DNA of 57,447 nucleotides, taken from an uncultured Eubacteriales bacterium (lineage in GTDB: Bacteria; Bacillota; Clostridia; Christensenellales; CAG-138). The stretch lies in NCBI GenBank assembly GCA_900318765.1, contig ONLX01000025.1, positions 1 through 57,447 of the forward strand, written 5' to 3'. Shown here in pieces: positions 4,976-43,993 of the stretch; the stretch's first letter is position 1; each line of letters starts with the position of its first letter. The notes below the pieces were generated by a model. It had not been told where the DNA came from. It saw only the letters and a list, made by a program, of their open reading frames with translations, and made no database searches. The position numbers were made by a program, and so were the translations under genes.

Positions 4976-6613
4976 TTACTCCGCTCCATCCGGCTGTTTT
5001 CCGTTGTATTCCAAACACAGCATGGTCAGATCATCGAACTGTTCCGCGTCCAAAACGAACCCATCCACCGCCGCGCGAACGTTTTTCAGCACCTGCTGCG
5101 GATGCGCTTGCGGCTCCCGGTTCAGCGCTTGCAGCATCCGATCCGTTCCGAACATATTCCCTTCGGCATCGGTCGCCTCCGGAACGCCGTCGGTATACAG
5201 GAACAACCGCGCGCCGGGCTGCAGCGTCAGCTCATATTCGCGATAGCGAACGCCCTCCATTCCGCCGACAACAAATCCATGCCGATCCTTCAGCAGCTCA
5301 TACGCGCCATCCGGCTGTCGGATGACCGGGTATTCATGGCCCGCATTCGCCGCCGTGATCTTTCCGGTAGAAATCTCCAGAATTCCCACCCAGACCGTAA
5401 CGAACATCTGTACCTGATTGCTGTCGCAGATCGCCTCATTCGTCCGATACAGGATTTCTGAAGCGGAGCGCCCGAGCCGGGCGCAGCTTTGCAGAATGAT
5501 TTTGGACGCCATCATGAACAGGGCAGCCGGAACGCCTTTCCCGGAAACATCCGCAATCACGAGGCAGAGATGATCCTCGTCGATCAAAAAATAATCATAG
5601 AAATCCCCGCCGACTTCCTTCGCAGGATCCATCGACGCATAAAGATCAAACTCGTTCCGGTTGGGGAACGGCGGGAATGTATGCGGCAACATGCTTTCCT
5701 GAATCGAGGTCGCAAGCTGCAGCTCCGTACCGATGCGCTCCCGTTCGGCCGTGAGCGTCGTCAGATTCGTCACATAATGCACCATATCCGTTTCCATCTT
5801 ATCGATGGATGCGGCCAGATTGGAGATCTCTTCGATTCTGCTGATCGTTCCGAGCGGTTCTTCTTTGGTGTTCTCCTTTGCAAACCGAGTCGCCTCATCG
5901 GAAACGCGCTTAACAGGCCCTACCACCTGTTTGTTGAGGAACACGGCGATGAATCCTCCCGCCAATGCCGCCATCAGGAATGTGGAGATTGCAATCCGCA
6001 CGAGGAACGGACGCCGCGCGTCGTTGAGTTCCCGCGCGGGCCGCTGGATGCACAGAATGCCGACAACGTAGTCCGTCGAATCCTTTACCGGCACAAGAGT
6101 TGTTACATGCGGATGCTGCCCGTCCGTCGGATACGTGCGATAGATGGTTTCATACGCCGCTTCCTTCCGATAGAGCGCTTCGTATTTTTGCCGGTATTCT
6201 GCATTGGTCGTATCGCGTTGATGCCCGAGTTCCCAAGGCGTATACTCCGTGTTGTCGACCGAATTGTTCACCAAATTGAAAACGGATACGAACCGTCCGT
6301 AATCGCTTGTATCGGGAATAATCACGTAAATCAGCGAAACGTTCATCTTTCCGCAATACACATCGAGGCGTGCTTTGGTTTGCGCATACTCCTCGGCATA
6401 TTCCCCGGAAACATAGGAAGCAAGATGATCCCCATTGACCAGCACCGCCGCGGTTTGCGCCATATGGAAGGTTGAGGTCGAATACTCCTGTTGAAATGCG
6501 TCGGTAAAGCTCATAAGACCGATCGAGCTGACAACCATGCCGAACAGCACAAGCGTAAACGCAATCGCTCCGATGATATTGACCGCCATGCGGTATTGTT
6601 TTTTGGGCAGCAT
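4976..6613 (-). CDS. Membrane-bound SpoIIE/RsbU-type PP2C phosphatase with HAMP domain
   Basis: This 545-residue protein probably senses an outside signal and dephosphorylates a STAS-domain anti-anti-sigma factor. A first membrane helix lies at about residues 10-35, then an extracytoplasmic sensor of some 165 residues, a second helix near 205-225, a HAMP linker containing RVSDEATRFAKE, a short coiled coil, and a PP2C domain over the last 220 residues. PP2C metal motifs are visible as GGDFYDYF, VADVSGKGVPAALFM and FLYTDGVPEA. It is first in the operon with the Nudix and PNPOx-like genes, with its own promoter at 6667-6695. No partner STAS or kinase gene is adjacent; a STAS gene does occur at 43.6 kb. 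Confidence 0.88.
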   Translation of the reverse strand: MLPKKQYRMAVNIIGAIAFTLVLFGMVVSSIGLMSFTDAFQQEYSTSTFHMAQTAAVLVNGDHLASYVSGEYAEEYAQTKARLDVYCGKMNVSLIYVIIPDTSDYGRFVSVFNLVNNSVDNTEYTPWELGHQRDTTNAEYRQKYEALYRKEAAYETIYRTYPTDGQHPHVTTLVPVKDSTDYVVGILCIQRPARELNDARRPFLVRIAISTFLMAALAGGFIAVFLNKQVVGPVKRVSDEATRFAKENTKEEPLGTISRIEEISNLAASIDKMETDMVHYVTNLTTLTAERERIGTELQLATSIQESMLPHTFPPFPNRNEFDLYASMDPAKEVGGDFYDYFLIDEDHLCLVIADVSGKGVPAALFMMASKIILQSCARLGRSASEILYRTNEAICDSNQVQMFVTVWVGILEISTGKITAANAGHEYPVIRQPDGAYELLKDRHGFVVGGMEGVRYREYELTLQPGARLFLYTDGVPEATDAEGNMFGTDRMLQALNREPQAHPQQVLKNVRAAVDGFVLDAEQFDDLTMLCLEYNGKQPDGAE

Positions 6614-23736: not shown

Positions 23737-23742
23737 CGTTTT

Positions 23743-25041: not shown

Positions 25042-25046
25042 ATTCC

Positions 25047-25088
25047 AAAAAAGAGCGGCGGAAATCCATCCATCAGATCCCCGCCGCT
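25047..25088 (-). terminator. Intra-operon hairpin with T-tract between nrfA and resB
   Basis: On the minus strand AGCGGCGG pairs with CCGCCGCT (8 bp; 25081-25088 with 25054-25061) around a 19-base loop, followed by C and T6. It has the form of an intrinsic terminator, yet resB and resC follow with no obvious promoter of their own. Partial termination is the likely role. Confidence 0.6.
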
Positions 25089-25100
25089 GTTCATACGAGT

Positions 25101-26408: not shown

Positions 26409-26423
26409 CGAATCCCCCTCCCG

Positions 26424-27242: not shown

Positions 27243-27254
27243 CGCACACCTCCG

Positions 27255-28519: not shown

Positions 28520-28520
28520 A

Positions 28521-30086: not shown

Positions 30087-31438
30087 TGTTTGCCTCCTGC
30101 CGCAGCCGCTGCGCGCTTCTTCGCCATCAATTCCGCTTTTGTCTGCTTAAACGCCTGTGTGAGCGGGCGTTTTGCCGGGCAGATGTAAGTGCAGGAGCCG
30201 CAAGCCACGCAATCCAGTCCATGCAGCTTGTTTTCATACCGCTCCATGTCCCCTGCCGTAATCGCGTCCGCCATCATCTGCGGCATCAGACCGCTCGGGC
30301 AAACCGTCGTGCAGCGTCCGCAATGCAGGCACGCGGTCATCTGTTTTTCGGCCAGCTCCACCGCGTCCTCGGCCAGCACCGTGATCGCATTCGTCGTTTT
30401 GGTCACGGGAACGTCCGTCGTCCCGACCGCAATGCCCATCATCGGTCCGCCCGAAAGCACCTTCACAGCTTCCTTGCCCTCGCGGATGCCTCCGCATGCT
30501 TCGATCAGTTCCGCAAAGCTCGTGCCGTCCCGCACGATGAAATTGCGCGGCACAGCAATCGCCTCGCCGGTCACGGTCAGCACATGGCGGAACAGCGGTT
30601 CCCGGTAGTGCACCGCCCGTCCGATCGCATAGAGCGTTCCGACGTTGCTGACAATGCAGCCGACATCCGCCGGCAGCTTGTTGATCGGATAATCGATTCC
30701 CGCAATCGCCTTGATGAGGCTGCGCTCGCCGCCCTGCGGGTACTTGGTTCGCATTTTCAGAACGCGGATGCGCGGATGCCCGTTCACGGCCTTTTGCATC
30801 GCGGCAATCGCTTCGGGCTTGTTCGATTCAATCGCAACGATCCCCTCGGCATTCGGAAACAGCTTCAGAACGACTTCCATGCCCTCCAGAATGCCCTTGG
30901 CGCTCGACCGCATCAGCTGATCGTTGCAGGTCAGGTACGGTTCGCACTCGGCACCGTTCGCAATGACGAACCGAATGCCGAGCGGCACTTTGGGCATGAG
31001 CTTCACGTGCGTCGGGAACCCGGCGCCGCCGAGGCCGATAATGCCGGCGTTCTTCACGCGCGCAATGATCTCCTCGTTCGATAAGGAGGAAAGCTCTTCG
31101 CGCTCGGTATACGCTTCGACCGCGGTAAACTGCCCGTCGTTTTCCACAACGATGCACTCCTGCATCGTGCCGGCGATCGTGCGCCGTTTCTCGATTGCTT
31201 TCACCTTCCCGGAGCAGGAACAGATGATGTTTGCGGAAACGAATCCATCCGCCTCGGCAATGCACTGCCCCGCAAGCACCGGATCGCCCTTTATGACGAT
31301 GGGTTTTGCGGGTTTTCCGATGTGCTGCGCGAGCGGAAAGACCAGGTCGCCGACCGGATTGTATGCACGCAGCGGCATTTCCCGACTGAGCTCCTTATGC
31401 CCTCTCGGATGAACGCCGCCGCGGAATGTGTCCTTCAC
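30083..31438 (-). CDS. rnfC: Rnf complex subunit C
   Basis: This 451-residue cytoplasmic-face subunit exchanges electrons with NAD. It has an N-terminal barrel-like domain (GGVHPRGHKELS), a flavin/NAD-binding domain (GLGGAGFPTHVKL, ANGAECEPYLTCND), and two 4Fe-4S clusters bound by Cys370, 373, 376, 380 and Cys410, 413, 416, 420. Translation starts at a GTG with AGGGGG nine bases before it. It opens the operon rnfC-DG-E-A-B-nrfA-resB-resC behind a strong promoter. Confidence 0.94.
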   Translation of the reverse strand: MKDTFRGGVHPRGHKELSREMPLRAYNPVGDLVFPLAQHIGKPAKPIVIKGDPVLAGQCIAEADGFVSANIICSCSGKVKAIEKRRTIAGTMQECIVVENDGQFTAVEAYTEREELSSLSNEEIIARVKNAGIIGLGGAGFPTHVKLMPKVPLGIRFVIANGAECEPYLTCNDQLMRSSAKGILEGMEVVLKLFPNAEGIVAIESNKPEAIAAMQKAVNGHPRIRVLKMRTKYPQGGERSLIKAIAGIDYPINKLPADVGCIVSNVGTLYAIGRAVHYREPLFRHVLTVTGEAIAVPRNFIVRDGTSFAELIEACGGIREGKEAVKVLSGGPMMGIAVGTTDVPVTKTTNAITVLAEDAVELAEKQMTACLHCGRCTTVCPSGLMPQMMADAITAGDMERYENKLHGLDCVACGSCTYICPAKRPLTQAFKQTKAELMAKKRAAAAAGGKQ

Positions 31439-31600: not shown

Positions 31601-33799
31601 TCACGCGCTTGGCGCAGGGCGATCGATCCGCTGCCGTTCGACCAGTTCGGCAAACGCTCCGTTTTGGGCAATCAGTTTCTCGTATGTCCCGTCCTCCAGG
31701 ATCGTTCCGCCGTCCAGCAGCAGAATCCGATCGCAGTTGCGGATCGTGCTGAGTCGGTGCGCGATCACGATGCGCGTGCATTTGAGCCGATCGAGCGCTT
31801 CACTGACCTGCTTCTGCGTCTTGTTGTCGAGTGCGGACGTCGCCTCGTCAAGCACCAGAATCTTTGGGCTCGACGCAACCGCGCGCGCGATCATCAATCG
31901 CTGCTTCTGCCCGCCGGAGATTCCGCCCTGCCCTTCCGAGATCAACGTCTGCATGCCCATCGGCATCTCCCGGATATCCTCGGCGATCCCCGCAATTTCG
32001 GCTGCCTTCCATGCATCGTCCAACGTCGCATACGGCGCGGAGATCGTAATGTTCGAGAAGATGTCCCCTTGGAACAACTGTCCGTTCTGCGTGACCACGC
32101 CCATAAATTTGCGTACAGACCGCGGATCGAGGCTGTTCAGATCCTTCCCGTCAAAATAGACCGCGCCGCGCTGGGGTTTCTCGAATCCGAGCAGCAGCCG
32201 CAGCAGCGTGGATTTCCCGCATCCCGTTCTGCCGACGAGGGCAACGTATTCCCCGGGACGGATTTTCAGCGAAAGATCCTTCAGCACATCCGGGGTGTTT
32301 TCATCGTACCGGAAAAAGACGTGGTTCAGCTCAATCCCGCCGGAGAGCTTCGTCAGAACCTCTTTGCTCCCGGTCACCTCCGGTTCGGTGTTCAGAATGG
32401 GCTCGGCCATCTCAAGCACCGGCTTCATCTGCGCAAACGCCGTCGCAAGCGACGCAAGCGCGGTAAACGCGCCCATCAGATGACCGTATGACGCCGTAAA
32501 CGCGTTGTAATCTGCTACACTCACATTGGATTGCACCGCGATCAGATACAATGCAATGTTTCCGATCAGCCCGATTGCCGTGAGAAGAACGCCGTCCAGT
32601 TTCAAGAACAGCGGCGGATTGTACTCGAGCTTCGACGCTTCGGAAAAAACGCCTGCCCAGCGGGCGAACGCGCGCTTCTCAGCGCCGGCCAGCTTGATCT
32701 TCTGAATGCCGGAGACCATTGCGTAGCTCAGCCCCCGTTCCTTCGCCAAAAGCTCCATCCGCTTCCGGGAAATGCGAATCCTCGCAAACATCGCAATCGT
32801 GCTGAGCAGCACCGTCGCCAAAATGATGATCAACGAAGGAGCAACGAGCGCGGGCGCGAACCGCGAAATCTGCACCACATACAGCAGCGACAGAATGGAA
32901 GACAGCCCGACCGAAAGGACGTTGCCGATCATCATCTGGCAGAGCGCGCTGACCGACCCGGCGCGGCTTGCCAGTTCGCCGGAGGAGAACCCCCGAAAGA
33001 AGCTCACCGGAAGCGACAGAATCCGCATCATCACGGCCGATTCAACCGCCATCGACGTTTTCGTATGGATCCGTCCCATCAGAAGGGTTCGGACAACGCC
33101 GATGAGCTGGGACGAGAACGCCGCGCACAGCAGAAAGATCGCCGTACCGATCAGTATCGAATAGGATCGGTTGCTCAGCACAGGCCCCATCAAAATGCGA
33201 TACGCCCGCGGCTCGATCATTCCGACGAGCGTGACCGCCAGCGTCGCAATGAGAATCAGCACAAAATCGCTGACGGAAATGCTGTCCTTCATATACAGCA
33301 AAAGATCGGGAATTCCGAGCTTCTTCATCGGCATCGGACGATAGAAGCACACGGCTTCCTCGCAAAAATCCGACGCCGTTTTTTTCGTAATCCGAACGGT
33401 TTCTCCCGTTTTCGGATCGCGATAATGATACCCATGCAGCAGGTTGGGCAGCAGCGCGACCGGATCGTTTCCATCCTTCAAAAACCCGATCATCGGCCCG
33501 AATGCGTCCTTTTGCCAACCAGGCTCCAGCCGAATCGCGCGCGTCATGATGCCGAGAGGACGCAGCACGTAATCCATCTGCTCCTCGGCCGTCTGGATCG
33601 AATCCGGGACCTTCACCGGGGCGCAGCGATAATACTTCAAAATATCGTCGAGCGCTTCCCGCGCAATCGTCATTCGATCCCGCATCAGGTCCGCCACCCT
33701 GCCCCCGAGCACGGATGCAGCGACGCGCACAAACGAATCGTCAAACAGATTCCGATCGCTCTCCATCCGCTGCCGGATCTGTTCGTCAAACCATCCCAT
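31601..33799 (-). CDS. NHLP-type bacteriocin export ABC transporter, permease-ATPase subunit
   Basis: This 732-residue protein matches the second ABC component of NHLP/NHLM peptide-export systems. Its first 160 residues are a non-membrane domain in the position of, but unlike, a C39 peptidase. Helices occupy about 170-460, and the ATPase domain ends the protein, with Walker A GRTGCGKST, signature GGISGGQKQR and Walker B ILVLDEATSALD. It probably forms a heterodimer with the peptidase-bearing ABC protein encoded 20 bases upstream. It is the last gene of its operon; no clear terminator separates it from the rnf promoter. Confidence 0.9.
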   Translation of the reverse strand: MGWFDEQIRQRMESDRNLFDDSFVRVAASVLGGRVADLMRDRMTIAREALDDILKYYRCAPVKVPDSIQTAEEQMDYVLRPLGIMTRAIRLEPGWQKDAFGPMIGFLKDGNDPVALLPNLLHGYHYRDPKTGETVRITKKTASDFCEEAVCFYRPMPMKKLGIPDLLLYMKDSISVSDFVLILIATLAVTLVGMIEPRAYRILMGPVLSNRSYSILIGTAIFLLCAAFSSQLIGVVRTLLMGRIHTKTSMAVESAVMMRILSLPVSFFRGFSSGELASRAGSVSALCQMMIGNVLSVGLSSILSLLYVVQISRFAPALVAPSLIIILATVLLSTIAMFARIRISRKRMELLAKERGLSYAMVSGIQKIKLAGAEKRAFARWAGVFSEASKLEYNPPLFLKLDGVLLTAIGLIGNIALYLIAVQSNVSVADYNAFTASYGHLMGAFTALASLATAFAQMKPVLEMAEPILNTEPEVTGSKEVLTKLSGGIELNHVFFRYDENTPDVLKDLSLKIRPGEYVALVGRTGCGKSTLLRLLLGFEKPQRGAVYFDGKDLNSLDPRSVRKFMGVVTQNGQLFQGDIFSNITISAPYATLDDAWKAAEIAGIAEDIREMPMGMQTLISEGQGGISGGQKQRLMIARAVASSPKILVLDEATSALDNKTQKQVSEALDRLKCTRIVIAHRLSTIRNCDRILLLDGGTILEDGTYEKLIAQNGAFAELVERQRIDRPAPSA

Positions 33800-33819
33800 A
33801 CGAATCCGCCTCCTTTCCG

Positions 33820-36018
33820 CTACTCACTGAGCACGAGGTCGGCATACGCGCCGCCCTTTGCGTACAGTTCTTCATGCGTGCCGCGCTCGACGACGCGCCC
33901 CTTTTCGAGCACGATAATCTCATCGCAGTCGCGAATTGTGCTGAGGCGATGCGCAATCACGATGCAGGTGATCCCGCGATCGCGGATCGCGTTGACAACA
34001 TCATATTCCGTTTTGGCGTCGAGCGCGCTCGTCGCCTCATCGAGAAGAATCACCGAGGGATCCTGCGCAAGCACACGCGCAATCTCGAGCCGCTGTCGCT
34101 GTCCGCCGGAGAGATCCTTGCCGTTTTCGGTGAGTTTGCCGTCGTATCCGCCCGGGCGCAGCATGATATCATCATGAATCTGCGCATCCCGCGCGGCCAG
34201 AATCACCTCAAAGTCCGCAATCGAGCGGTCCCACATCCGGATGTTTTCGGCAATCGTATCCTCAAACAGAATGATATCCTGGTCCACCACCGCAAGCGAA
34301 CCGGTAAACACGCTGCGCGGAATCTCTTCGATCGGCTTCCCGTCGAACAGAATTTCGCCGCTCCACGGCCGGTAAAGTCCGGAAATCAGCTTGCTGATCG
34401 TCGATTTTCCGCAGCCGCTCGCGCCGACGATCGCCACTCGGCTGCCCGGTTTCAGATGCATGGAAAAATCGCGCACAACCGGCTCCCCGAACTTTGAATA
34501 GCCGAATGTCACGTTCTTCAGCTCCACCTCGCCGCGCAGCTTCGAATAGTCCTCCGATTCCGAAAGCGGCTCCTCCCGAACGAACGGATCGTTCGGATAC
34601 TCCATCACGTCCTCGATGCGCTCCATCTGCGTCCGCGTCTCCAGAATCGTCTGCCCCGCGTCGATCAGCGTCATGGCGGGGTTCATAAACTGTGCCAGGT
34701 AGCTCTGGAATGTCGCAATCATACCGACGGTGAAGTTGCCGTCCATCGCAAGACGAACGCCGAAGAACAGCACCAGATAGTTGGCCGCCGTTCCGATAAA
34801 CGCTGGAATCTGTCCGAGCGAAGCGTTCAGCCGCGCGTACCGGACCGCCTGCGTATTCACGGACGCCTGATAGCCCGCCCACTTCGAGAAGAATCCGTTT
34901 TCCGCTCCGGCGGCCTTGATCGTCTCGGTCATGCCGATTCCGGCATAGGTCGCAGCGGACAGCTTCGCCGCATCCCGCATCTGCACGCGCGTGATGTTGA
35001 CGCGTTTTTCCGAAATGTAATTGGCTAAGAACGCATTGCAAAAGACGCTCAACAGGCCGATCAACGTCAAAAGAAGGCTGTATCGGATCATGATGACGAG
35101 GTAAAACACCATCATCAATAGGTTCAGCAAAAACGGAGCGACGGTTTGCACCAATGCGCTCGCAATCGACGCGTTGGACTGTTCGCGCTCCAGAATATCC
35201 CCCGCCATGCGCTGAGAAAAGAATTCCATCGGAAGCCGCAGCACCTTCCAGATGTAACTTGTGCTGCCGATGACGGACAGCTTCCCGTCGATCCGCAGCG
35301 AATAGATCGCCTGAATCATCTCCACGGCAAGCTGCAGAACGCACAGCAGCCCCATGATCGCGATGAACGGGACCAGCCACTCCGGGTTGAGCCCGGTCAG
35401 AAGCCGATCGTAAAACACCTGCGTCATCACCGGGTTTATCACGCCGAACAGGTAGGAGATTGCCGTCGTCAGCATCATAAAGAGGATCGCTGCGCCGGCG
35501 CCGACCAATCTTTTTTTCGCAAACGCAATCGCGCTCTTTGGCTTTCCGCCCGGAACGAATTGCTCCCCGGGCGTCATGCGAAGCACAATCCCGGTAAATG
35601 CACGGTCGAACTCCTCCATCGAGAGCAGTACCGTTCCGCGCGCGGGGTCGTTGATGCTCGCTTTTCCGTTCCGAAAGCCGTTCAGCACAACAAAATGATT
35701 GAAATTCCAATGGATGATGCAGGGAAATTCCGCCTGCTGTTTCAGCATTTGCGGCTCCATGCGATAGCCGTTCGCAGTAAACCCGTAATTGCGGGCGGCG
35801 AGCAGCATGTTTTTGGCGTTCGACCCATCCCGCGAAACGCCGCAGTCAAGCCGTACCTGTTCCAACGGAACCCATTTTTGATAGTATGCCATGACCATGG
35901 CAAGGCACGCCGCGCCGCATTCCAGATCCTCCATCTGCATCACGACCGGCACCTTCGCCGCCCCTTTGCGAACCGGACGCCTGATCCGGTTCCGTTTGAT
36001 CGAAGCTTGCTGTTCCAT
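33820..36018 (-). CDS. NHLP-type peptide exporter: C39 peptidase-permease-ATPase
   Basis: This 732-residue protein cleaves a leader peptide and exports the mature peptide. The N-terminal C39 domain keeps the catalytic set: Gln28 and Cys34 in QMEDLECGAACLAMVM, His108 in HWNFNHFVVLNG, and Asp124 in INDPARG. Membrane helices span about 165-450. The ATPase has Walker A GASGCGKST, signature DLSGGQRQR and Walker B VILLDEATSALD. GGAAGGA precedes the ATG, six bases after the adaptor gene. An intact peptidase implies a double-glycine-type precursor, but none is encoded nearby. Confidence 0.92.
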   Translation of the reverse strand: MEQQASIKRNRIRRPVRKGAAKVPVVMQMEDLECGAACLAMVMAYYQKWVPLEQVRLDCGVSRDGSNAKNMLLAARNYGFTANGYRMEPQMLKQQAEFPCIIHWNFNHFVVLNGFRNGKASINDPARGTVLLSMEEFDRAFTGIVLRMTPGEQFVPGGKPKSAIAFAKKRLVGAGAAILFMMLTTAISYLFGVINPVMTQVFYDRLLTGLNPEWLVPFIAIMGLLCVLQLAVEMIQAIYSLRIDGKLSVIGSTSYIWKVLRLPMEFFSQRMAGDILEREQSNASIASALVQTVAPFLLNLLMMVFYLVIMIRYSLLLTLIGLLSVFCNAFLANYISEKRVNITRVQMRDAAKLSAATYAGIGMTETIKAAGAENGFFSKWAGYQASVNTQAVRYARLNASLGQIPAFIGTAANYLVLFFGVRLAMDGNFTVGMIATFQSYLAQFMNPAMTLIDAGQTILETRTQMERIEDVMEYPNDPFVREEPLSESEDYSKLRGEVELKNVTFGYSKFGEPVVRDFSMHLKPGSRVAIVGASGCGKSTISKLISGLYRPWSGEILFDGKPIEEIPRSVFTGSLAVVDQDIILFEDTIAENIRMWDRSIADFEVILAARDAQIHDDIMLRPGGYDGKLTENGKDLSGGQRQRLEIARVLAQDPSVILLDEATSALDAKTEYDVVNAIRDRGITCIVIAHRLSTIRDCDEIIVLEKGRVVERGTHEELYAKGGAYADLVLSE

Positions 36019-36024
36019 GCGCCG

Positions 36025-36441
36025 TTATTCCTTCCAAAGGAATCGGATCGGCGAGATCGTTTCCAGAACAACCGTTCCGGAATACGTTCCGTCCGGCAGC
36101 GAAATCTGCGCCGAAAGCGCGGCGGTTTGATCGGCATTCCAAAGCACGGAATCGATCGTTGTTTCCGTCCCGCCGAGGCGCAGCGTCATGCCCTCGGAAA
36201 CCTCTGGCTCGCGGTCGGATCGGACCGTGGCCACGGCAATCCCGTTCCGAACGGTGAACTCCGCAGGAACCGTCGTCTCAATCCGTCCTACGATCGCAAA
36301 CACGATCAGTCCCGCCAACAGAACGATCACCGCAATCAACACCATCCAAACGCTCGGATTGGTGACGCGCATATAATCCTGCAGCTGTTCCAGGGACTGA
36401 ATCCGATCCAGATTTTTTTGCCGAAAAAGTTTGTTTTCCAT
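36025..36441 (-). CDS. Short NHLP secretion adaptor-like membrane protein
   Basis: This 138-residue protein starts like the NHLP HlyD-type adaptor: a cytoplasmic helix (LDRIQSLEQLQDYMRVTNP), one membrane helix at about 33-53, then an outside beta domain. Normal adaptors of this class are several hundred residues long and include a coiled-coil hairpin and lipoyl-like halves; here only about 85 outside residues remain. The stop is followed at once by the exporter gene, so the short form looks intentional rather than decayed. The ATG at 36441 follows AAAGGAG. It may clamp the exporter without spanning a thick envelope. Confidence 0.75.
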   Translation of the reverse strand: MENKLFRQKNLDRIQSLEQLQDYMRVTNPSVWMVLIAVIVLLAGLIVFAIVGRIETTVPAEFTVRNGIAVATVRSDREPEVSEGMTLRLGGTETTIDSVLWNADQTAALSAQISLPDGTYSGTVVLETISPIRFLWKE

Positions 36442-36482
36442 GCTATGCTCCTTTGAACGATCCCGCATAAGGCAGATAGTTG

Positions 36483-36541: not shown

Positions 36542-36579
36542 AAAAAAACCTGCAAAGAATCGCGTTCTTTGCAGGTTTT
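36542..36579 (-). terminator. Terminator of the STAS-synthetase-ABC operon
   Basis: A 15-bp stem (36545-36559 with 36565-36579) and 5-base loop begins 12 bases after the permease stop, with a T-run on the minus strand. It separates this operon from the NHLP operon. Confidence 0.88.
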
Positions 36580-36590
36580 CCCGAAAAGTG

Positions 36591-37532
36591 TTATCGTTTG
36601 TCCCGATCGATGAACTCGAGCACCGCGATCGATACGATGGCAGCGACCGCCGTCAGCAGCAGCAGCGCGCCCCAGGTCGTAAGGACATTGTTGATCGTGC
36701 TGGCGTATGCGGCTTTCTGGTTGATCGAGCCGGACCACTGCAAAATCTCATCCATCTTGCCCTGTTGTTCGATGCTTTGAATCAAGGCAAGCACCGGCTT
36801 TCCTTCGGCAAACTCCACATCCTTCAGCCGGAACATCGTATTCCAGAGCGTGACCATCGGAAGCTCATTGAACCGGCCGATCGCGCAGATGCTCTCAATG
36901 CCCCATTTCGAAACGGTCAGCTTCGTGAGCTGCTCGGCAAAGCCCGTCATCTGGAAAAACGTCCCCGAGAAGATGAGCTGAAAGATCAGCAAAAACGGCA
37001 TCACGGTCATCGCGGTCGTCGTCGTCCGGACGATCGAGGAGATCATCAGCGCAAGCATATCCGCCGCGAACGTGATCAGCAGGATCGTGATGCCGAGATC
37101 GACGATGCCCCACGGCGTTACAACGCCCTGCACGGGGAAGGATACGCCTGCGATTCTGCAGATCAGAAGCGTCACGATCGTCTGCACGAGGCAGAGGATC
37201 AGCTGATAGATCATATGCGCCGCAATGTACGAAGAGATATGCAGCCCCGCGCGATGCTCATGCTTGATCGTTTTCCGCTCGCGGCAAACGACCTGAATCG
37301 AGTTGAAGAACCCGTTCCAGATGCAGGCGCACGCGAGCGCGAACGCGCCGTTCGTCGTCCCCTCCTGCGTTCTGAACAGATTTCCGCCGACAACGAACGT
37401 CACAACGGCGGCGATCACCGCGCCGAGCGGGATAACCTTCCAGTCGCTCTGATAAACGAACATGCGCAGCAGCTTGCAAAGATAGATCCGTGTCTGCGCG
37501 AGCCTTCCGTTCCGTTTCAGTTCCGTATTCAT
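36591..37532 (-). CDS. ABC-2/ABCG-type transporter permease
   Basis: This 313-residue membrane protein has the ABCG-like permease pattern: an amphipathic start, about six helices, a conserved VCRERKTIKHEHRAGLHISSY loop resembling the ABCG connecting helix, and an outside loop of some 80 residues before the last helix (about 280-300). It overlaps the upstream ATPase gene by four bases, so the two subunits are made together. The substrate may be the product of the synthetase in the same operon (inference). Confidence 0.82.
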   Translation of the reverse strand: MNTELKRNGRLAQTRIYLCKLLRMFVYQSDWKVIPLGAVIAAVVTFVVGGNLFRTQEGTTNGAFALACACIWNGFFNSIQVVCRERKTIKHEHRAGLHISSYIAAHMIYQLILCLVQTIVTLLICRIAGVSFPVQGVVTPWGIVDLGITILLITFAADMLALMISSIVRTTTTAMTVMPFLLIFQLIFSGTFFQMTGFAEQLTKLTVSKWGIESICAIGRFNELPMVTLWNTMFRLKDVEFAEGKPVLALIQSIEQQGKMDEILQWSGSINQKAAYASTINNVLTTWGALLLLTAVAAIVSIAVLEFIDRDKR

Positions 37533-38917
37533 TCCGCAGCGCCCCCTTTCCGCGTTGCGGCAAACAGCTCCGCGTAGTGCTCCGCAAGGCCTTCGCCGCC
37601 CTCCTCCTTCTGATTGATCGACATGAGGATTCCCTCCATCGTGTCCTTATGGAAAAACGCTTTCGCTTCGTCCGGCGTTCCGTAGAACGTCAGGCGGCCG
37701 GTTCTTTGCGAATCCTTGCCGAGAATGATAACGCGGTCAAACAGATCGATCACGCGATCCGGCGTATGCGTAATGACGATGACGATCTTTCCGTCGTCCG
37801 CAATCGTGCGCAGTTTTTGGAAAATCTCCCGCGCAATAATGCCGTCCAATCCGGAATCCGGCTCGTCCAGAACGAACAGTTCCGGATCCGAAACGAGCTC
37901 CATCGCAATCGCGATCCGGCGAAGCTGACCGCCCGACTTTTTGGAGACGAGCCCCTCGCTTCCGGACGAAAGTCCCAAAAGCGCCAGAACTTCGTTGACC
38001 CGCTCGATCCGATCCTTTGTTTTTACCGATTTGGGAAGCCGCATCTCGGCCGCGTCGTCCACCGTGTACAGCACGGTATCGTTGCCCCGCATCAGGTTTT
38101 GCTGCGGAACAAATCCGATCCGATACTTCATATCCGCACCGTCGTGATACACATCCCTTCCGTTCAGAACGATCTTCGCATCGGCTTTTTCGTAGCCGAT
38201 GACCGCATTCACAAACGTCGTCTTACCGGCGCCGGATCCGCCGAGCAGCAGCACCATCGAACCGTTCGGCACGGTCATCGCGATATCGCGAAGCAGATGA
38301 TGTGTTTTCCCGAATTCCCGCACCTTGCGTTCCCGGATGTTCACATAAAGACCCGTCTTCGGAATCGTATCCGTTGTCTCCGAATCGGGCACGATCGCCT
38401 TGGACTCCGCTTCCGCCCGTTCCTCTGCCGCCTGTTCCGCTTCGGCCTTTTGCAAGAACTCCGCCTTGGGCTGATATTTTTTCCCGAATCCCAGGATCAG
38501 TATGGTGAGCGATTCAAGCAGGAGGAAGAACACAATCCAGTAATTCTTCCGTTCAAAGACCCGCAGAATCCGCATGAACAAACGAATGCGGAACACAAAG
38601 AGCGCGATATACACGACAAAGTGCAGCAGCATAATCGCAACGGACCAGCCTTGCGACGTCGCATCTACGTTGATCAACGAAATTGCCAGATTCAGCACGT
38701 CGAGCACGCCGCACAGGATGCCGTCAATCGTGTGCTCCAGGGCATTTCCGAGCGCAAAAAAGCGCGCTCCCGGGATCCAGGCCATCCACACGTTCTTCCA
38801 ATGCAGCTTCTTCAGGATTTTCCTTAGGCCAAGCGAAAACAGAAACCATGTGAAAAGAACCTGTGCAGCAGACAGCAGAATGCCGACCCATATCACGGTG
38901 TTTTGCGTATCCATCAA
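37529..38917 (-). CDS. ABC transporter ATPase fused to an N-terminal membrane domain
   Basis: This 462-residue protein has four hydrophobic helices in the first 155 residues, including the segment WMAWIPGARFFALG, then a Glu/Ala-rich linker (about 155-185). An ABCG-like ATPase follows, with Walker A GGSGAGKTT, signature KKSGGQLRR, Walker B LFVLDEPDSGLD and H-loop VITHTPDR. The membrane part alone is too small to be a full permease; the next gene supplies one. A fused membrane anchor on an ABCG-type ATPase is unusual. The family of the N-terminal domain is not firmly recognised. The start could be either of two adjacent ATGs. Confidence 0.8.
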   Translation of the reverse strand: MMDTQNTVIWVGILLSAAQVLFTWFLFSLGLRKILKKLHWKNVWMAWIPGARFFALGNALEHTIDGILCGVLDVLNLAISLINVDATSQGWSVAIMLLHFVVYIALFVFRIRLFMRILRVFERKNYWIVFFLLLESLTILILGFGKKYQPKAEFLQKAEAEQAAEERAEAESKAIVPDSETTDTIPKTGLYVNIRERKVREFGKTHHLLRDIAMTVPNGSMVLLLGGSGAGKTTFVNAVIGYEKADAKIVLNGRDVYHDGADMKYRIGFVPQQNLMRGNDTVLYTVDDAAEMRLPKSVKTKDRIERVNEVLALLGLSSGSEGLVSKKSGGQLRRIAIAMELVSDPELFVLDEPDSGLDGIIAREIFQKLRTIADDGKIVIVITHTPDRVIDLFDRVIILGKDSQRTGRLTFYGTPDEAKAFFHKDTMEGILMSINQKEEGGEGLAEHYAELFAATRKGGAAE

Positions 38918-38954
38918 GTAACCTCCTAACCTCCTTGCCGGAATCCGTCCGGCT

Positions 38955-40622
38955 TTAAAACAAACTGTGTATGCCCCAGATCATCAGCCCGACCGTGAGC
39001 GCAAGGATCAACAGCACCTTTCCGATCGATCGGTACACAAACGGTACGCGATAATCCATCGTCGCATAAGACGGATTGATCCGGTATCGCAACAGCGGAG
39101 CAAGCAGCTTTCGCTGTTCTCCCCTCAGGTCCCGTTCCGTCCGCGGCTTCCTGCAAAGCACCATCGTCTCCCGCGTGGTTCCGTCGTACGGCGGCCACAA
39201 AAGCTCCGGCGTTCCGGGATCCCCGTCTGTTGCAAACTTCGCCCAAATCTGCATCACCCGCTTCGCAAGCTCGCGGTTGGCCGGTTCCCCCGTATAGACC
39301 GTATCCTCCGTGTTGCCGAACACGTACGCAAGCTCCGCCGCGTGACAGGCGCCGTATTGCCATAGCTTGCTCGGCTGCATCCAGTAGTACAGGAAGACCT
39401 TCCCGCCATGCGCGGCATGCTGCTCGGCCTGCTCGATCGCAGGGAGCCGGAACATCATCTCGGTATAAAACGCGCTGAGCTTCCAGATCCAATGCCCCGC
39501 TTCGCTCCGCAAAAACCGCCTCGCGCGTGCCCGATCCTCCTTCGGAAGCTTTTTGAGATCGTTCTCAAACTTGATCGGAATCCCAAACCCAAACGGAATG
39601 ATTCCGCCGATCTCGCCGATCCAGTAATTCATCTCGTCTGCGTTCGTTCCGATCATCATGTCCACATCCGCCGTCACGCCGTTCCGATACGGTTCGTATG
39701 CGTCCTCCGGGATCAGCTTGCCGTCGCGCTGCGGAAAGTTGTTGTACGGATTCAGCGGCTCATTGATTCGCATCAGCTCCGCTTCCGAAAGCGCGCATAG
39801 ATCGTCCATCGTTTTGGCTCCGCTCGTTTTCAAAAGCCGTCTTGTGAACTCCCGGCACTCCTCCTTCGAAAACGTCAGCGCAACCGAACCGCTTTCGGCA
39901 ATCACCCGTCGGAACAGCCCCTTCGCCTCGGGAATGCACGGCAGCAGCGAAACGCTCCCGCCGCCCGCCGATTCCCCGAAGATCGTGATGTTCTCCGGAT
40001 CGCCTCCGAACGCCGCCGCATTCCGTTTCACCCAGCGCAGCGCCTCGATCTGATCGTACAGGCCGAGGTTCGGCGCGTCCGAATAGGCTTCTCCGCCCGG
40101 GACTTCGGAAAAATCGACAAATCCCATCAGCCCGACGCGATAGCCGACCGTGATCAAAACGATCCCCGGCTGTTCGGTCACGAAGTTCGTTCCGTCGTAC
40201 ATCGGATCCGCCGTTCCGCCCCATCCGTAGGCCCCGCCGTGGAAGAACACCATCACGGGCTTGTGCGCATCGAGGCAGGTACGATTTTTCCATACGTTCA
40301 GGTACAGGCAATCCTCCCCCTGAGGATAAAAGGAAGCTCGCTCGGTCGGCCATTCGCTCTGAATCGGCGATCGCCCGTTGTAGTACGCTTCCGAAACGGC
40401 ATCCGATTCCGGAACAGGCTCCGGCTTTTTCCACCGCAGCGCGCCGACCGGCGGTACGGCAAACGGGATGCCATAAAACACATCGATCGTTCCGTTCGTT
40501 TTGCCCACGAACGTTCCGTTGTGGCACCGCGCAGCAAGTGCGGGATCATATTCTCCCGAGATCGCCCTGTTGACGCCGAACGTCTTTCGGATGCGTTCCC
40601 GTTCCGTTTGCTTTCTGTTCAT
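38955..40622 (-). CDS. Membrane-anchored type B carboxylesterase
   Basis: This 555-residue enzyme belongs to the carboxylesterase/cholinesterase family. The oxyanion HGG is at 128-130, the nucleophile Ser218 lies in FGESAGGGS, the catalytic acid is probably the Glu in GTNADEMNYW, and the His lies in YGACHAAELAYVFGN. A single hydrophobic helix closes the protein (LLILALTVGLMIWGIHSLF), so it is a tail-anchored membrane enzyme; it has no signal peptide. It is eight bases after the synthetase gene and may release, trim or transfer the acyl product from the synthetase (inference). Confidence 0.87.
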   Translation of the reverse strand: MNRKQTERERIRKTFGVNRAISGEYDPALAARCHNGTFVGKTNGTIDVFYGIPFAVPPVGALRWKKPEPVPESDAVSEAYYNGRSPIQSEWPTERASFYPQGEDCLYLNVWKNRTCLDAHKPVMVFFHGGAYGWGGTADPMYDGTNFVTEQPGIVLITVGYRVGLMGFVDFSEVPGGEAYSDAPNLGLYDQIEALRWVKRNAAAFGGDPENITIFGESAGGGSVSLLPCIPEAKGLFRRVIAESGSVALTFSKEECREFTRRLLKTSGAKTMDDLCALSEAELMRINEPLNPYNNFPQRDGKLIPEDAYEPYRNGVTADVDMMIGTNADEMNYWIGEIGGIIPFGFGIPIKFENDLKKLPKEDRARARRFLRSEAGHWIWKLSAFYTEMMFRLPAIEQAEQHAAHGGKVFLYYWMQPSKLWQYGACHAAELAYVFGNTEDTVYTGEPANRELAKRVMQIWAKFATDGDPGTPELLWPPYDGTTRETMVLCRKPRTERDLRGEQRKLLAPLLRYRINPSYATMDYRVPFVYRSIGKVLLILALTVGLMIWGIHSLF

Positions 40623-40630
40623 CGACTTCC

Positions 40631-43621
40631 TTATTTCTTTCTGCGGAACATGCCCACAATTTTCGCGAAGAAATTCTGTTTGTCCTCAATCTTGCGCCGC
40701 AGTTCTCCGACCGTCAGATCCGTTTGAGACGTGTTCGTAGCGATCGCCTGCGCAACGTGCACAAAGATGTCCTTGAATCGTTCGATGCTCGCATCCTCAT
40801 AGCGGCTCGCCGCGTAATCGATCATCAGGATGAGCCCTTCCGCGCCGTCCAAGATTTCCATATCCAGAATCGTCTGCGACGCGGCCTGGTTCTGCCGGAT
40901 CTCGACGGTCTCAACGTTCATGCCCTCCAGACCGCCCATATCGCGGATATCCTGCTGATACAGCAGGTACGCGGATTCGCCGTTTGCAACCTGGTTGTTG
41001 AGATCCACAAACGGATAGCAGCTGTGCTCAATGCCCTTCTGCACCTGTTCGTGCACGTCGCCGAACAGATCGCGCACGGTGCGGTTGTCGTTCAGCCGAA
41101 CGCCGATCGGCAGATCGCGGAACAATAGACCGACGCTGGACATCATCTGCATATCCTCCCGTCCGTTGTAAATCCACGAGAGCTTGATGTCGTTTTTCCG
41201 ATTGTAATACGAGATCGCAAGCGCGGCCACCGAGATAAAGAACTCGTTCCGGCTGATGCGGTACCGCTTTTCGATCGCGTTCATCTGCCCCTGTTCGAGC
41301 CCGAGCTCGGCAAACAGCTCGCCCATCTCATTCTCGCGCGATTGATGATCGATCTTCGGATGGCTCGACCATTCGACGCCGTTGAACAGCGTTTCAAAGT
41401 AGCGTTTGCTCTCCTCGTAGAACGGCGTATGCACCGCCTCTTCCCGTTGCTGCAGCATCAGGTAATAGAAATCGGGATCCGGCTGCATGCCCATATAGAG
41501 TTTTCCGACGTTGCCCATGAACACCTTCAGCGACGTTCCGTCGAACAGCGTATGATGCACGTCGAAGAACACATACCCGTTCTTCTCCGTTTCGAAGACC
41601 CGGCAGCGATAGAGCCGCCCGCCGATGATCTTGAACGGCTGTACGAGCGTATCCTTGATGCTCTCAAACTCGAATTCGCTGATCTTCTCAACCCGGATTT
41701 CCTCCAAGTTCTCCGGTGTGTACCGCTGCACGATCTCGCCGTCGTCATTGAAGCGGAACGTCGTCAAAATTGCCGGATGATTCCGGATCGCCGTCTGCAG
41801 CGCGTTCGCCAGCTTCTTTAAATCGAACAGCTCTTTATCGATCTTGAGCATCGAGAACAGGTTGTACATCGTGGATTTCGGCGTGTAGAGCTGATAGTCC
41901 ACCATATAGAGCTGCTCCGTCGTCAACGGATGCTCGGTTTTCAAGGCGCTTGCGTTCTTGCTCTCGGGCGATTCGCCGTCGTAGTTCGCGCGTGACGCTT
42001 CATACAGCTTGGCAATCTTTTCGGGCGTGCGACCGCGGAAGATCTCGCTCGCGTTGAGACCGGGCAGCTCGCTCTCCACGATGACCTGGATCGATCCGAG
42101 TGAATCGCCGCCCATCTCGTAAAAGTCGTCGTGAATGCCGACCTGCTCGAGCCGGAGCACCGTCTCCATCGCATGACAGAGCTTTTGTTCGGTCTCGTTC
42201 GTCGGCGCGACATAATCGGTCTTGAAATCCTTCGTGTCGGGCTTCGGGAGCGCCTTCCGGTCGAGCTTGCCGTTTGCCTTCAAAGGCACCTGATCGATAT
42301 GGATATAGTAGGCCGGAATCATGTAGTACGGCAGTCGCTTCATCAGCTCCCGGCGCATCGCCTCCGGGTCCACCGGAACATCGGCCGTGTAGTACGCGCA
42401 AAGATAGCTCTTGCCGTTCTCCTCAAAGCCGCGCGCCGCCGCCCAGTCGATCCCAAGCGTTTGCTTCACGGCCGCCTCAATCTCCGCAGGCTCGATCCGA
42501 TTCCCGTTGATCTTGATCATATCGCCGCTGCGGCCGAGCAAAACGAAGTTTCCGTTCTCATCGCGCCGCGCAAGGTCGCCCGTGTGATAGACGCCGTTCA
42601 CGAATGCCTTCTTTGTCTCCTCGGGCAGATGGATATAGCCGCGCACATAGGGATTCTCAAAGCAGAGCTCGCCCATCTCGCCGTCGGCCACCTCGTTTCC
42701 GTCCTCGCCGATCAACCAGATCTTTGTTTCAACCTCCGGCTTGCCGATCGGGCAGGTTTCATAGGCCCGGTCGATCGGGAATACGCCGACCGCGAACCCG
42801 CTCTCCGAAGCCGCATAGATGTTGATCAGCTCAAGATTCTTGTTGTACAGGTTGTTGGCCGGTTCACTGCCGACGAACAGCATCCGCAGGAACGGTCCGG
42901 TCTGGTTGCCGAGCATCCGGACGTAAGACGGCGTCAAAAACGTGATGGTGATGCGCTTTTCGATAAAGAACATCTTGAGCGCCATCGGGTTCTTGATCGT
43001 TGCGTAGCTGACGATATACATGCGCCCGCCGCAGATGCTGAGCGTTTTGAGCACGACGATGACCGACGCGACAAAGTTCATCGGCGCAAGCAGCGCGAGC
43101 CGGTCCGACCCGTCAAACGGGGTCACGCCGTTTACGCGAATGGAATCGATCGCGCGGGAAAGGTTGCCGTATTCGTGCAGCACGCCCTTGGGGTTCCCGG
43201 TCGTTCCGGAGGTATAGATCGCATACGCAGCGTCATGCGGATCCGCCTGCTCGTACCCCGCAAGTGGAGTGCTGTTCATCACTTCGTCCCAGTTGGCCGC
43301 AGAAAGCTCCAGTTTGCACCCGCAGTCGGAACGAATATACGCAATCCGCTCCGGGGCGTACGTATCCTCCACGAGCGCCCATGCCGCGCCGGCTTTCCAT
43401 ACGCCAATCATCGCGACGACCGGCAGAACGCCGCGCGGCAGATTGATCAGAACAAAATCCTCCCTGCCGACGCCATGCGCTTTCAGATACGCGTACACGC
43501 GCCCGGTCATTTCATCGAGCTGCGCGTACGAAATGCCTTTGGAATGCGCTTCGTCGAACAAAATCGGCATTGCGGCATGCTCCGCCGTATACCGCTCCAG
43601 CAAAGAAAGAATGGTTTCCAT
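40631..43621 (-). CDS. NRPS-like synthetase: adenylation-carrier-condensation
   Basis: This 996-residue enzyme activates a carboxylic acid, loads it on its own carrier domain and condenses it with an acceptor. The adenylation domain (1 to about 465) has YTSGTTGNPKG (136-146), YHTGDLA (345-351), GRSGDMIKINGNRIEP and the C-terminal Lys452 in NGKLDRK. The carrier domain has GGDSL with Ser507 for phosphopantetheine. The condensation domain (about 565-980) keeps HHTLFDG at 689-695. The residue aligning with the amino-group-binding Asp of amino-acid-specific domains is Val184 (FVAS for FDAS), suggesting a substrate without an alpha-amino group. There is no thioesterase domain, and no phosphopantetheinyl transferase nearby. 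Confidence 0.9.
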   Translation of the reverse strand: METILSLLERYTAEHAAMPILFDEAHSKGISYAQLDEMTGRVYAYLKAHGVGREDFVLINLPRGVLPVVAMIGVWKAGAAWALVEDTYAPERIAYIRSDCGCKLELSAANWDEVMNSTPLAGYEQADPHDAAYAIYTSGTTGNPKGVLHEYGNLSRAIDSIRVNGVTPFDGSDRLALLAPMNFVASVIVVLKTLSICGGRMYIVSYATIKNPMALKMFFIEKRITITFLTPSYVRMLGNQTGPFLRMLFVGSEPANNLYNKNLELINIYAASESGFAVGVFPIDRAYETCPIGKPEVETKIWLIGEDGNEVADGEMGELCFENPYVRGYIHLPEETKKAFVNGVYHTGDLARRDENGNFVLLGRSGDMIKINGNRIEPAEIEAAVKQTLGIDWAAARGFEENGKSYLCAYYTADVPVDPEAMRRELMKRLPYYMIPAYYIHIDQVPLKANGKLDRKALPKPDTKDFKTDYVAPTNETEQKLCHAMETVLRLEQVGIHDDFYEMGGDSLGSIQVIVESELPGLNASEIFRGRTPEKIAKLYEASRANYDGESPESKNASALKTEHPLTTEQLYMVDYQLYTPKSTMYNLFSMLKIDKELFDLKKLANALQTAIRNHPAILTTFRFNDDGEIVQRYTPENLEEIRVEKISEFEFESIKDTLVQPFKIIGGRLYRCRVFETEKNGYVFFDVHHTLFDGTSLKVFMGNVGKLYMGMQPDPDFYYLMLQQREEAVHTPFYEESKRYFETLFNGVEWSSHPKIDHQSRENEMGELFAELGLEQGQMNAIEKRYRISRNEFFISVAALAISYYNRKNDIKLSWIYNGREDMQMMSSVGLLFRDLPIGVRLNDNRTVRDLFGDVHEQVQKGIEHSCYPFVDLNNQVANGESAYLLYQQDIRDMGGLEGMNVETVEIRQNQAASQTILDMEILDGAEGLILMIDYAASRYEDASIERFKDIFVHVAQAIATNTSQTDLTVGELRRKIEDKQNFFAKIVGMFRRKK

Positions 43622-43633
43622 GGTGCCTCCCCG

Positions 43634-43930
43634 TTACTCGATCGTCAAAAAATCTGTAAACCCGGTAACCTCGAATATATCCATAATCGTCTCGTTCACG
43701 TGCAGAAGTTTCATGCCGCCCCGCTGCTGCATCACTTTTTTTGCAACAAGCAGCACGCGAAGCCCTGCGGATGAGATGTATTCGAGTTTTTCAAAGTCAA
43801 GCACAAGCGTTTCCACGCCGCTTAGCGCGTCCTTCAGCTCCGCTTCAAGCACCGGTGCGCTGATTGTATCCAGTCTGCCTTTGAGGGCAAGCACCCGTTC
43901 GGTTCCGTTCTTCGTGGATTGGATGTTCAT
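43634..43930 (-). CDS. STAS-domain anti-anti-sigma factor-like protein
   Basis: This 98-residue protein matches the SpoIIAA/RsbV family: LKGRLDTISAPVLEAEL, VLDFEKLEYISSAGLRVLL with the phosphorylatable serine pair, and a C-terminal FEVTGFTDFL helix. Such proteins bind an anti-sigma kinase unless phosphorylated and are reset by SpoIIE-type phosphatases. Here it opens a biosynthesis and export operon with no kinase or sigma gene beside it, so it may act on a distant partner or serve as a scaffold. It lies 12 bases before the synthetase gene. Confidence 0.9.
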   Translation of the reverse strand: MNIQSTKNGTERVLALKGRLDTISAPVLEAELKDALSGVETLVLDFEKLEYISSAGLRVLLVAKKVMQQRGGMKLLHVNETIMDIFEVTGFTDFLTIE

Positions 43931-43963: not shown

Positions 43964-43993
43964 ATTATACCATCGTGATTCCCCCGAATGCAA
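43964..43993 (-). promoter_or_regulatory. Promoter of the STAS-synthetase-ABC operon
   Basis: On the minus strand TTGCAT and TATAAT are separated by 18 bases, 33 bases before the STAS start codon. Confidence 0.75.

What the first reader, a model, noticed from the sequence alone, without database searches (positions are those of the whole stretch)
36591..43930. Undescribed-looking operon: STAS protein, A-T-C synthetase, membrane esterase, membrane-fused ABC ATPase and permease
Five genes behind one promoter and before one strong terminator join a partner-switch type regulator to a single-module synthetase, a tail-anchored carboxylesterase and an exporter. The module order (adenylation, carrier, condensation), with no release domain, implies that the activated acid is transferred to a small or membrane-bound acceptor. 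The esterase may edit or release it, and the ABC pair may export it. I know no characterised pathway with this set. A SpoIIE phosphatase elsewhere in the window could reset the STAS protein.
Basis: inference. Interest (0 to 1): 0.78.

Follow-up and report, generated by a model that had tools for sequence, protein, structure and literature searches.

The report
Rumen acid-activating synthetase–esterase operon
An uncharacterised gene set, found mostly in rumen bacteria, that seems to activate a carboxylic acid other than an ordinary amino acid, hand it to an unknown small molecule, and link this to a protein switch and to either a membrane esterase or an export pump; what it makes is unknown.

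Summary
The five genes are real, adjacent and on one strand: STAS, A-T-C synthetase, C-terminally membrane-anchored carboxylesterase, ABC ATPase with N-terminal membrane segments, ABC-2 permease. A terminator follows; a separate NHLP-exporter unit lies downstream.

Relatives show that they are not one conserved five-gene pathway. Among the 80 closest synthetase loci kept (64-79% identity), the next gene is the esterase in 55 of 76 readable loci and a MATE pump in 15 of 76. These two exchange 8 times on the tree, while the synthetase pocket hardly changes. STAS is directly upstream in 36 of 71; SpoIIE phosphatase and RsbW-type kinase often lie nearby. The ABC pair is in 0 of 80 (49 with enough downstream DNA); congeners have it without this synthetase, once inside a STAS/SpoIIE cluster.

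The pocket (mostly VAIFLVIFAK; no Asp235 and no GPTE proline in 83 of 83 rows) argues against an alpha-amino acid and suits an alpha-keto or alpha-hydroxy acid. Two distant homologues sit beside VanH-like 2-hydroxyacid dehydrogenases. Methanobrevibacter ruminantium has a published multimodular NRPS with STAS, phosphatase and MatE neighbours, so this is a new variant of a known kind. Acceptor, product and STAS target are inferred.

The parts
43964..43993 (-). Putative promoter: TTGCAT, 18 nt, TATAAT with TGn before the -10
   Evidence: Read by eye; not listed by the consensus scan
43634..43930 (-). STAS-domain protein (anti-sigma-antagonist type) with the Ser loop YISSAGL
   Evidence: PF01740 7.5e-14, TIGR00377 4.9e-20 above cut-off; Ser54 in 53 of 53 rows; that this Ser matches the phosphorylated one of RsbV/SpoIIAA is recalled
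40631..43621 (-). A-T-C synthetase: adenylation 13 to about 460, carrier 479-537 (Ser507), condensation 562-968 (HHTLFDG)
   Evidence: Pfam (end of the A subdomain from NCBIfam matches); catalytic and pocket residues across 83 rows; AlphaFold2 mean pLDDT 81.8, pTM 0.48, best Foldseek matches LgrA
38955..40622 (-). Type-B carboxylesterase, Ser218/Glu330/His427, one C-terminal membrane segment, no N-terminal hydrophobic segment
   Evidence: PF00135 2.4e-91; triad in 55 of 55 rows, C-terminal segment in 44 of the 52 rows of 540 aa or more; PDB best 8wdm 6.1e-71
37529..38917 (-). ABC ATPase (ABCG-like) with four N-terminal membrane segments; not linked to the synthetase in relatives
   Evidence: PF00005 1.3e-20, TIGR00955 2e-47 below cut-off; segments; 0 of 80 loci
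36591..37532 (-). ABC-2 type permease, partner of the ABC ATPase
   Evidence: PF01061 1e-18; no hit in 80 loci; congeners have it without a close ATC homologue
36542..36579 (-). Intrinsic terminator of the operon
   Evidence: 15-bp inverted repeat plus T run seen directly; not listed by the scan
4976..6613 (-). Membrane SpoIIE-family phosphatase, possible STAS phosphatase (37 kb from the STAS gene)
   Evidence: PF07228 4.5e-50; 54% identical to SpoIIE next to STAS in G057; a second SpoIIE of the genome (C134) is an equal candidate

Best explanation
The conserved unit is a synthetase followed by an esterase or a MATE pump, often with STAS in front. Shown by sequence: the A domain has a nearly invariant hydrophobic pocket lacking the residues that hold an alpha-amino acid, the carrier serine and the condensation catalytic His are invariant, and in the close relatives the next gene is nearly always either a C-terminally membrane-anchored carboxylesterase or a MATE pump. 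Inferred: the A domain adenylates a hydrophobic alpha-keto or alpha-hydroxy acid and loads it on the carrier domain; the C domain, lying after the carrier, uses this acyl group as donor and passes it to a soluble amine or alcohol, giving a small amide or ester with no thioesterase needed. The membrane-side esterase and the MATE pump are alternative ways of dealing with that product (hydrolysing or remodelling it, or exporting it). The STAS protein, cycled by an RsbW-type kinase and a membrane SpoIIE phosphatase that may sense an outside cue, controls the cassette. In the window an unrelated ABC exporter pair, which in one congener sits in a STAS/SpoIIE cluster, has joined the operon.
For: A-T-C domains. 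Asp235 replaced by Val184 in 83 of 83 rows; code VAIFLVIFAK in 66 of 83; Ser507, His690, Asp694 and Gly695 in 83 of 83. The GPTE proline position is A 47, C 32, S 2, M 2, never Pro; among ordinary NRPS loci of the same bacterial family, 12 searched in forward frames, 8 gave 16 motifs, 14 of them GPTE. A review gives an aliphatic residue at 235 for alpha-hydroxy and alpha-keto A domains and loss of that Pro in the keto-acid domain StsA; P483M/A in LgrA raised keto-acid adenylation (PMC11253843, passages). Distant homologues in G021 and G026 have Met there and lie beside VanH-like 2-hydroxyacid dehydrogenase genes. EST 55 of 76, MATE 15 of 76 in the same slot; 8 label changes on the tree; main code in 45 of 52 EST and 9 of 15 MATE rows, the others conservative. 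A MATE-like gene also follows a 39% homologue in G339. G077 (97% complete, MATE type) has no close EST (best 31%; linked ones 49-65%); the window genome (79% complete) has no close MATE (best 23%). STAS 36 of 71 directly upstream. Kinase and phosphatase nearby in relatives. Same genome: PPTase, Sfp-like by eye; RsbW-like kinase beside a STAS paralogue identical at 77 of 98 residues; second SpoIIE. Stand-alone terminal C domain Kj12C uses a free amine (PMC6195595, passages).
Against: No biochemistry. McyG has Val at 235 and activates L-Phe (PMC11253843), so Val alone does not exclude an amino acid. No ketoreductase domain was found, and the dehydrogenase neighbour did not reach 100 bits in any of the 80 close loci. 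35 of 71 loci lack STAS directly upstream; 7 of these have it within 2.2 kb downstream. In 40 loci with at least 3 kb on both sides, 29 have any switch gene and 14 all three within about 6.5 kb. The distant homologues of G021 and G026, on which the dehydrogenase argument rests, have no STAS, esterase, MATE, SpoIIE or kinase hit in the 18-20 kb read; of three further distant homologues one (G339 C23) has only a MATE-like gene, one (G339 C9) none, and one contig (G413, 3.6 kb) is too short. 6 of 76 loci have neither EST nor MATE. Some EST loci also have a MATE gene upstream of STAS, so the two are alternatives only in the slot after the synthetase. Nothing shows what the STAS protein binds.
Confidence: 0.45

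Rival explanations
1. An ordinary single-residue NRPS that activates an amino acid and makes an aminoacyl amide, with an unusual but amino-acid-accepting pocket.
For: NRPS-type A domain, best solved relatives LgrA and tyrocidine synthases among the top matches; McyG has Val at 235 yet takes L-Phe (PMC11253843).
Against: Both amino-acid hallmarks are missing in all 83 rows (Asp235 and the GPTE Pro); VanH-like dehydrogenases beside two distant homologues.
Confidence: 0.2
2. The acceptor is membrane-bound (a lipid or wall polymer): the system acylates an envelope component and the anchored esterase removes the acyl group, as an envelope-modification switch.
For: Esterase C-terminal membrane segment in 44 of 52; A-domain similarity to DltA, well below that model's cut-off.
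Against: A MATE pump, normally for small compounds (recalled), replaces the esterase in 15 of 76 loci; the two hydrophobic stretches of the synthetase lie inside the A domain; I recognised no wall- or lipid-synthesis gene among the 13 clusters found in 4 or more loci (not all identified).
Confidence: 0.2
3. The five-gene set is one dedicated biosynthesis-and-export pathway, with the ABC pair exporting the synthetase product.
For: One strand, 37-nt gap then 4-nt overlap, one terminator.
Against: ABC pair in 0 of 80 relatives, 49 with at least 4.1 kb downstream; six congeners with a permease homologue lack a close ATC homologue (these genomes are incomplete); in G068 the pair sits in a SpoIIE/STAS cluster without a synthetase.
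Confidence: 0.1
4. STAS merely regulates transcription through a distant sigma factor and has no special tie to the synthetase.
For: STAS clusters also occur without the synthetase (G068; C15); canonical STAS proteins act through anti-sigma factors (PMC8256260, passages).
Against: STAS density near the synthetase is about 24 times that beyond 5 kb; I recognised no sigma-factor gene among recurrent neighbours (not a dedicated search).
Confidence: 0.35

Closest known systems
Methanobrevibacter ruminantium M1 NRPS clusters mru0066-0071 and mru0512-0516 (PMC2812497, passages read)
   Same: NRPS beside serine phosphatases, anti-sigma antagonist and MatE pump; a further cluster with anti-sigma kinase and PPTase; rumen; product unknown
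   Different: Two C-A-T modules with a terminal release domain, and a second NRPS of four modules, not A-T-C; no carboxylesterase mentioned in the passages read
Rhabdopeptide system Kj12ABC, terminal C domain (PMC6195595, passages read)
   Same: A C domain passes a carrier-bound acyl group to a free small molecule
   Different: Stand-alone C domain, peptide donor, amine acceptor known; here the C domain is fused, the donor is a single acyl group and the acceptor is unknown
StsA-type alpha-keto-acid and EnSynA1-type alpha-hydroxy-acid adenylation domains (PMC11253843, passages read)
   Same: Small or aliphatic residue at position 235; in StsA also no Pro in the GPTE motif
   Different: Those belong to depsipeptide synthetases; this has one module and no ketoreductase domain
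RsbU/RsbV/RsbW and SypA/SypE-type partner switches (PMC8256260, passages read)
   Same: STAS with conserved Ser, RsbW-type kinase, SpoIIE phosphatase in relatives
   Different: No sigma factor recognised nearby; the target is unknown
Type-B carboxylesterases such as p-nitrobenzyl esterase (PDB 1c7j)
   Same: Full-domain sequence match and catalytic triad
   Different: C-terminal membrane segment, and gene placed directly after a synthetase gene

Membership tests
NRPS (A-T-C module) | A, T and C domains with carrier Ser and HHxxxDG | tested here: met
   Ser507, His690, Asp694, Gly695 in 83 of 83; first His in 81 of 83
alpha-amino-acid A domain | Asp at position 235 and GPTE motif | tested here: not met
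   Val in 83 of 83; Pro position A/C/S/M in 83 of 83
alpha-keto/alpha-hydroxy-acid A domain | Small or aliphatic residue at 235; for keto acids non-Pro at the StsA Met415 position | tested here: met
   criteria; necessary, not sufficient (McyG exception)
alpha-keto/alpha-hydroxy-acid A domain | Activates such an acid | not testable with these tools
   Needs enzyme assay
alpha-keto-acid depsipeptide module | Embedded ketoreductase domain | tested here: not met
   No such domain in Pfam scan
Aryl-acid A domain (DhbE type) | Asn235 and QQVxFMAEGL A5 motif | tested here: not met
   Val184 and INIYAASESGF, criteria
Partner-switching module | STAS with conserved Ser, RsbW-type kinase, SpoIIE phosphatase | tested here: met
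   Ser54 53 of 53; kinase and phosphatase beside STAS in relatives; in the window genome the genes are scattered
Partner-switching module | Phosphorylation-dependent binding to a target | not testable with these tools
   Needs biochemistry
Type-B carboxylesterase | Ser-Glu-His triad and oxyanion glycine | tested here: met
   55 of 55 rows each
M. ruminantium NRPS cluster type | Multimodular C-A-T synthetase with terminal release domain | tested here: not met
   Single A-T-C
Synthetase-linked ABC exporter | ABC pair co-occurs with the synthetase in relatives | tested here: not met
   0 of 80 loci, 49 of them with at least 4.1 kb downstream; congeners have it without a close ATC

The most novel reading that the evidence does not exclude
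A rumen small-molecule system in which a partner switch acts directly on a one-module synthetase (no sigma factor), and in which a membrane-anchored esterase and a MATE pump are interchangeable ways of clearing or releasing an acyl product made from an alpha-keto or alpha-hydroxy acid, perhaps an intercellular signal or a self-harmful compound.
Probability: 0.15. Interest if true: 0.78.

Novelty: new variant of a known kind. Interest (0 to 1): 0.52.

Why it matters
At least 80 loci of this subfamily, most of them from rumen or ruminant-gut MAGs, share an almost fixed pocket, so most members probably use one acid, and no product is known. One enzyme assay could open a shared chemical of a major ecosystem. 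The esterase/MATE exchange is a natural experiment on what the partner protein does, and the switch without a recognised sigma factor bears on what STAS proteins control.

Tried and rejected
Rejected: that all five genes form one conserved pathway (0 of 80 for the ABC pair). Rejected: an aryl acid of the DhbE type (motifs absent). Considered: involvement of the downstream NHLP exporter genes; they have their own promoter-like site after the terminator, and no NHLP gene reached 250 bits in any of the 80 loci. A plasmid search gave 46 records, all below 60% identity; the 8 rows listed are 26-29% identical, most annotated as NRPS. Literature searches (listings only) showed no paper describing the A-T-C/esterase cassette; only open-licence PMC papers were searched. 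One 435-aa neighbour (L096:568-1875) that I took by eye for a condensation-type protein matched no Pfam or NCBIfam model. The substrate code was mapped from the LgrA alignment and motif positions, not from model coordinates. The STAS count changed with method (25, 32, 36 of 71) because early counts used over-long ORF starts; I use. The tree labels (EST 52 including the window, MATE 15, other 11, cut 3) come from the stricter ORF method; moves several 'other' to EST; the 8 changes use only EST and MATE rows, on a FastTree tree with 20 of 80 inner branches drawn open. In one search I had hidden hits under 60 bits; the re-check showed a MATE-like gene behind the G339 C23 homologue, and the text says so. 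The second structure job was not used.
Full report
Observation. The five ORFs, their order and strand are confirmed, with domain assignments above Pfam cut-offs. Gaps of 12, 8 and 37 nt and a 4-nt overlap, a strong terminator at 36579-36542 and an extended -10 box before STAS fit one transcript, though no transcript data exist. The scanner listed neither signal; both were read directly. A new promoter-like site (11 of 12) follows the terminator and precedes a separate unit: a short NHLP HlyD-like protein and two NHLP exporter ABC proteins.

The synthetase. It has A, T and C domains and no release domain in Pfam. AlphaFold2 gave mean pLDDT 81.8 and pTM 0.48; the best Foldseek matches are LgrA constructs, and phmmer aligns residues 27-960 with LgrA A, T and C regions. 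In an alignment of 83 rows (window, 80 loci, G021, G026) carrier Ser507 and condensation His690, Asp694 and Gly695 are in all rows. The specificity positions, mapped through the LgrA alignment, read V A I F L V I F A K; 66 of 83 rows are identical and the rest of the close family differs conservatively. Position 235 is Val in all 83. The proline of the GPTE motif is A in 47, C in 32, S in 2, M in 2; 12 ordinary NRPS loci of the same bacterial family were searched with a pattern in forward frames, 8 gave 16 motifs, and 14 of these read GPTE. A review states that alpha-hydroxy-acid domains carry a smaller aliphatic residue at 235, that StsA (alpha-keto acid) has Ile there and Met at the proline, and that replacing this Pro in LgrA raised keto-acid adenylation; it also notes McyG, with Val at 235, which takes L-Phe (PMC11253843, passages). 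The two distant homologues in G021 and G026 (37 and 40% identity) have Met at that position and each lies directly beside a 2-hydroxyacid dehydrogenase gene, which matches VanH D-lactate dehydrogenase models below their cut-offs. So a keto or hydroxy acid is favoured, not proved.

Relatives. My counts describe these closest relatives only, at 64-79% identity. In 20 of 80 record titles a ruminant animal or its gut is named, and 39 more bear RUG isolate names (rumen uncultured genome: recalled). One record, Butyrivibrio sp. LC3010 (L109), is not labelled a MAG. Within the window's bacterial family 5 of 103 genomes carry a match of 37% identity or more (the window's included). Of 76 loci with at least 600 bases downstream, the esterase follows directly in 55, a MATE pump in 15, and neither in 6 (L055, L070, L087, L090, L099, L103). 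Three of those six (L087, L090, L103) branch first in the tree. Esterase and MATE labels need 8 changes on a FastTree tree of the synthetase, and both label classes have much the same pocket (main code in 45 of 52 and 9 of 15). MATE-type genome G077 (97% complete) has no close esterase (best 31%, against 49-65% for 55 linked ones), and the window's incomplete genome has no close MATE (best 23%). The esterase triad is in 55 of 55 rows and a C-terminal hydrophobic segment in 44 of 52; no row has an N-terminal one, so the catalytic part should face the cytoplasm (inference). Further out, the homologue on G339 C23 (39%) has a MATE-like gene behind it, that on G339 C9 (30%) no partner gene, the G413 contig is too short to tell, and G021 and G026 have no STAS, esterase, MATE, SpoIIE or kinase hit in the 18-20 kb read. 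The cassette is thus a feature of the close subfamily.

The switch. STAS is directly upstream in 36 of 71 loci with enough upstream sequence; 7 of the other 35 have it within 2.2 kb downstream; STAS hits number 48 in 340,750 bp within 2.5 kb of the synthetase against 2 in 344,697 bp beyond 5 kb. In 40 loci with at least 3 kb on both sides, 27 have STAS, 18 a SpoIIE phosphatase, 15 an RsbW-type kinase, 29 any of these and 14 all three within about 6.5 kb. In G057 phosphatase and kinase are one protein directly behind STAS. Ser54 of the STAS loop is in 53 of 53 STAS rows; that it matches the phosphorylated Ser of RsbV and SpoIIAA is recalled. In the window's genome the other parts are scattered: SpoIIE at 6613-4976, a second one on contig C134, and a STAS paralogue (77 of 98 identical) next to an RsbW-like kinase on C15. 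I recognised no sigma-factor gene among the 13 neighbour clusters shared by four or more loci, but I did not identify every cluster.

The ABC pair. No permease hit and no ABC hit above 100 bits was found in the 80 loci, 49 of which hold at least 4.1 kb downstream (one search agrees). In the genus, 7 of 23 genomes have a permease match, the window's included; the other six had no close ATC homologue (G056 had only ordinary NRPS hits; completeness of the six 71-90%). The four of these six loci that I fetched show the ABC gene beside the permease. In G068 the pair follows a SpoIIE protein (with a kinase part by eye), two STAS genes and a membrane protein; a similar-looking membrane protein precedes the synthetase in G077 (likeness by eye). 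Hence the pair looks like another client of such switches rather than the synthetase's own exporter.

Mechanism. Most likely: acid activation, loading, condensation-domain transfer to a soluble acceptor, then membrane-side hydrolysis or export, all under the switch. Carrier loading is feasible because the genome has a phosphopantetheinyl transferase, Sfp-like by eye. Transfer to a free amine by a terminal C domain is known for Kj12C (PMC6195595, passages). Acceptor, product, esterase role and STAS target are inferred.

Known relatives. M. ruminantium carries multimodular NRPS genes with serine phosphatases, an anti-sigma antagonist and a MatE pump, and a separate cluster with an anti-sigma kinase and a PPTase (PMC2812497, passages). 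A rumen survey counted 5,346 NRPS among 14,814 clusters of 8,160 genomes; its main text holds no word beginning with anti-sigma, SpoIIE, esterase or transporter (PMC8241843, passages). So the regulatory company is known; the A-T-C synthetase with the esterase and the esterase/MATE exchange did not show in the listings. Verdict: new variant of a known kind, of moderate interest.

Noticed in passing
31601-36468: NHLP exporter genes (ABC1 above its cut-off, ABC2 0.1 bit below) with only a 147-aa HlyD-like protein that matches the first 64 of 421 model positions; I did not search for a precursor peptide gene.
   Followed up: partly
22921-31438: Rnf complex genes (rnfC by model) beside ORFs that by eye look like a multihaem cytochrome (nitrite-reductase type) and cytochrome c maturation proteins.
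   Followed up: no
L067:5749-8659: Behind ATC-EST lies a STAS-APH kinase-like fusion, an APH-like protein and a tyrosine phosphatase, another possible phospho-switch.
   Followed up: no
L145:3799-5774: In the window's genome a protein that by eye looks like a doubled degenerate HATPase precedes a STAS and an RsbW-like kinase gene; similar ORFs precede the STAS genes in L156.
   Followed up: partly
L045:14657-15514: A Bax-inhibitor-1-like membrane protein (PF12811, tested for this one) belongs to a cluster seen in 7 loci, in 5 of them directly after the esterase on the same strand.
   Followed up: no
L019, L025, L026 (G026 contig C16): A 2972-aa open frame of multimodular NRPS type in the same genome as a distant ATC homologue; one A5 motif reads NAYGMSE instead of GPTE.
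   Followed up: no
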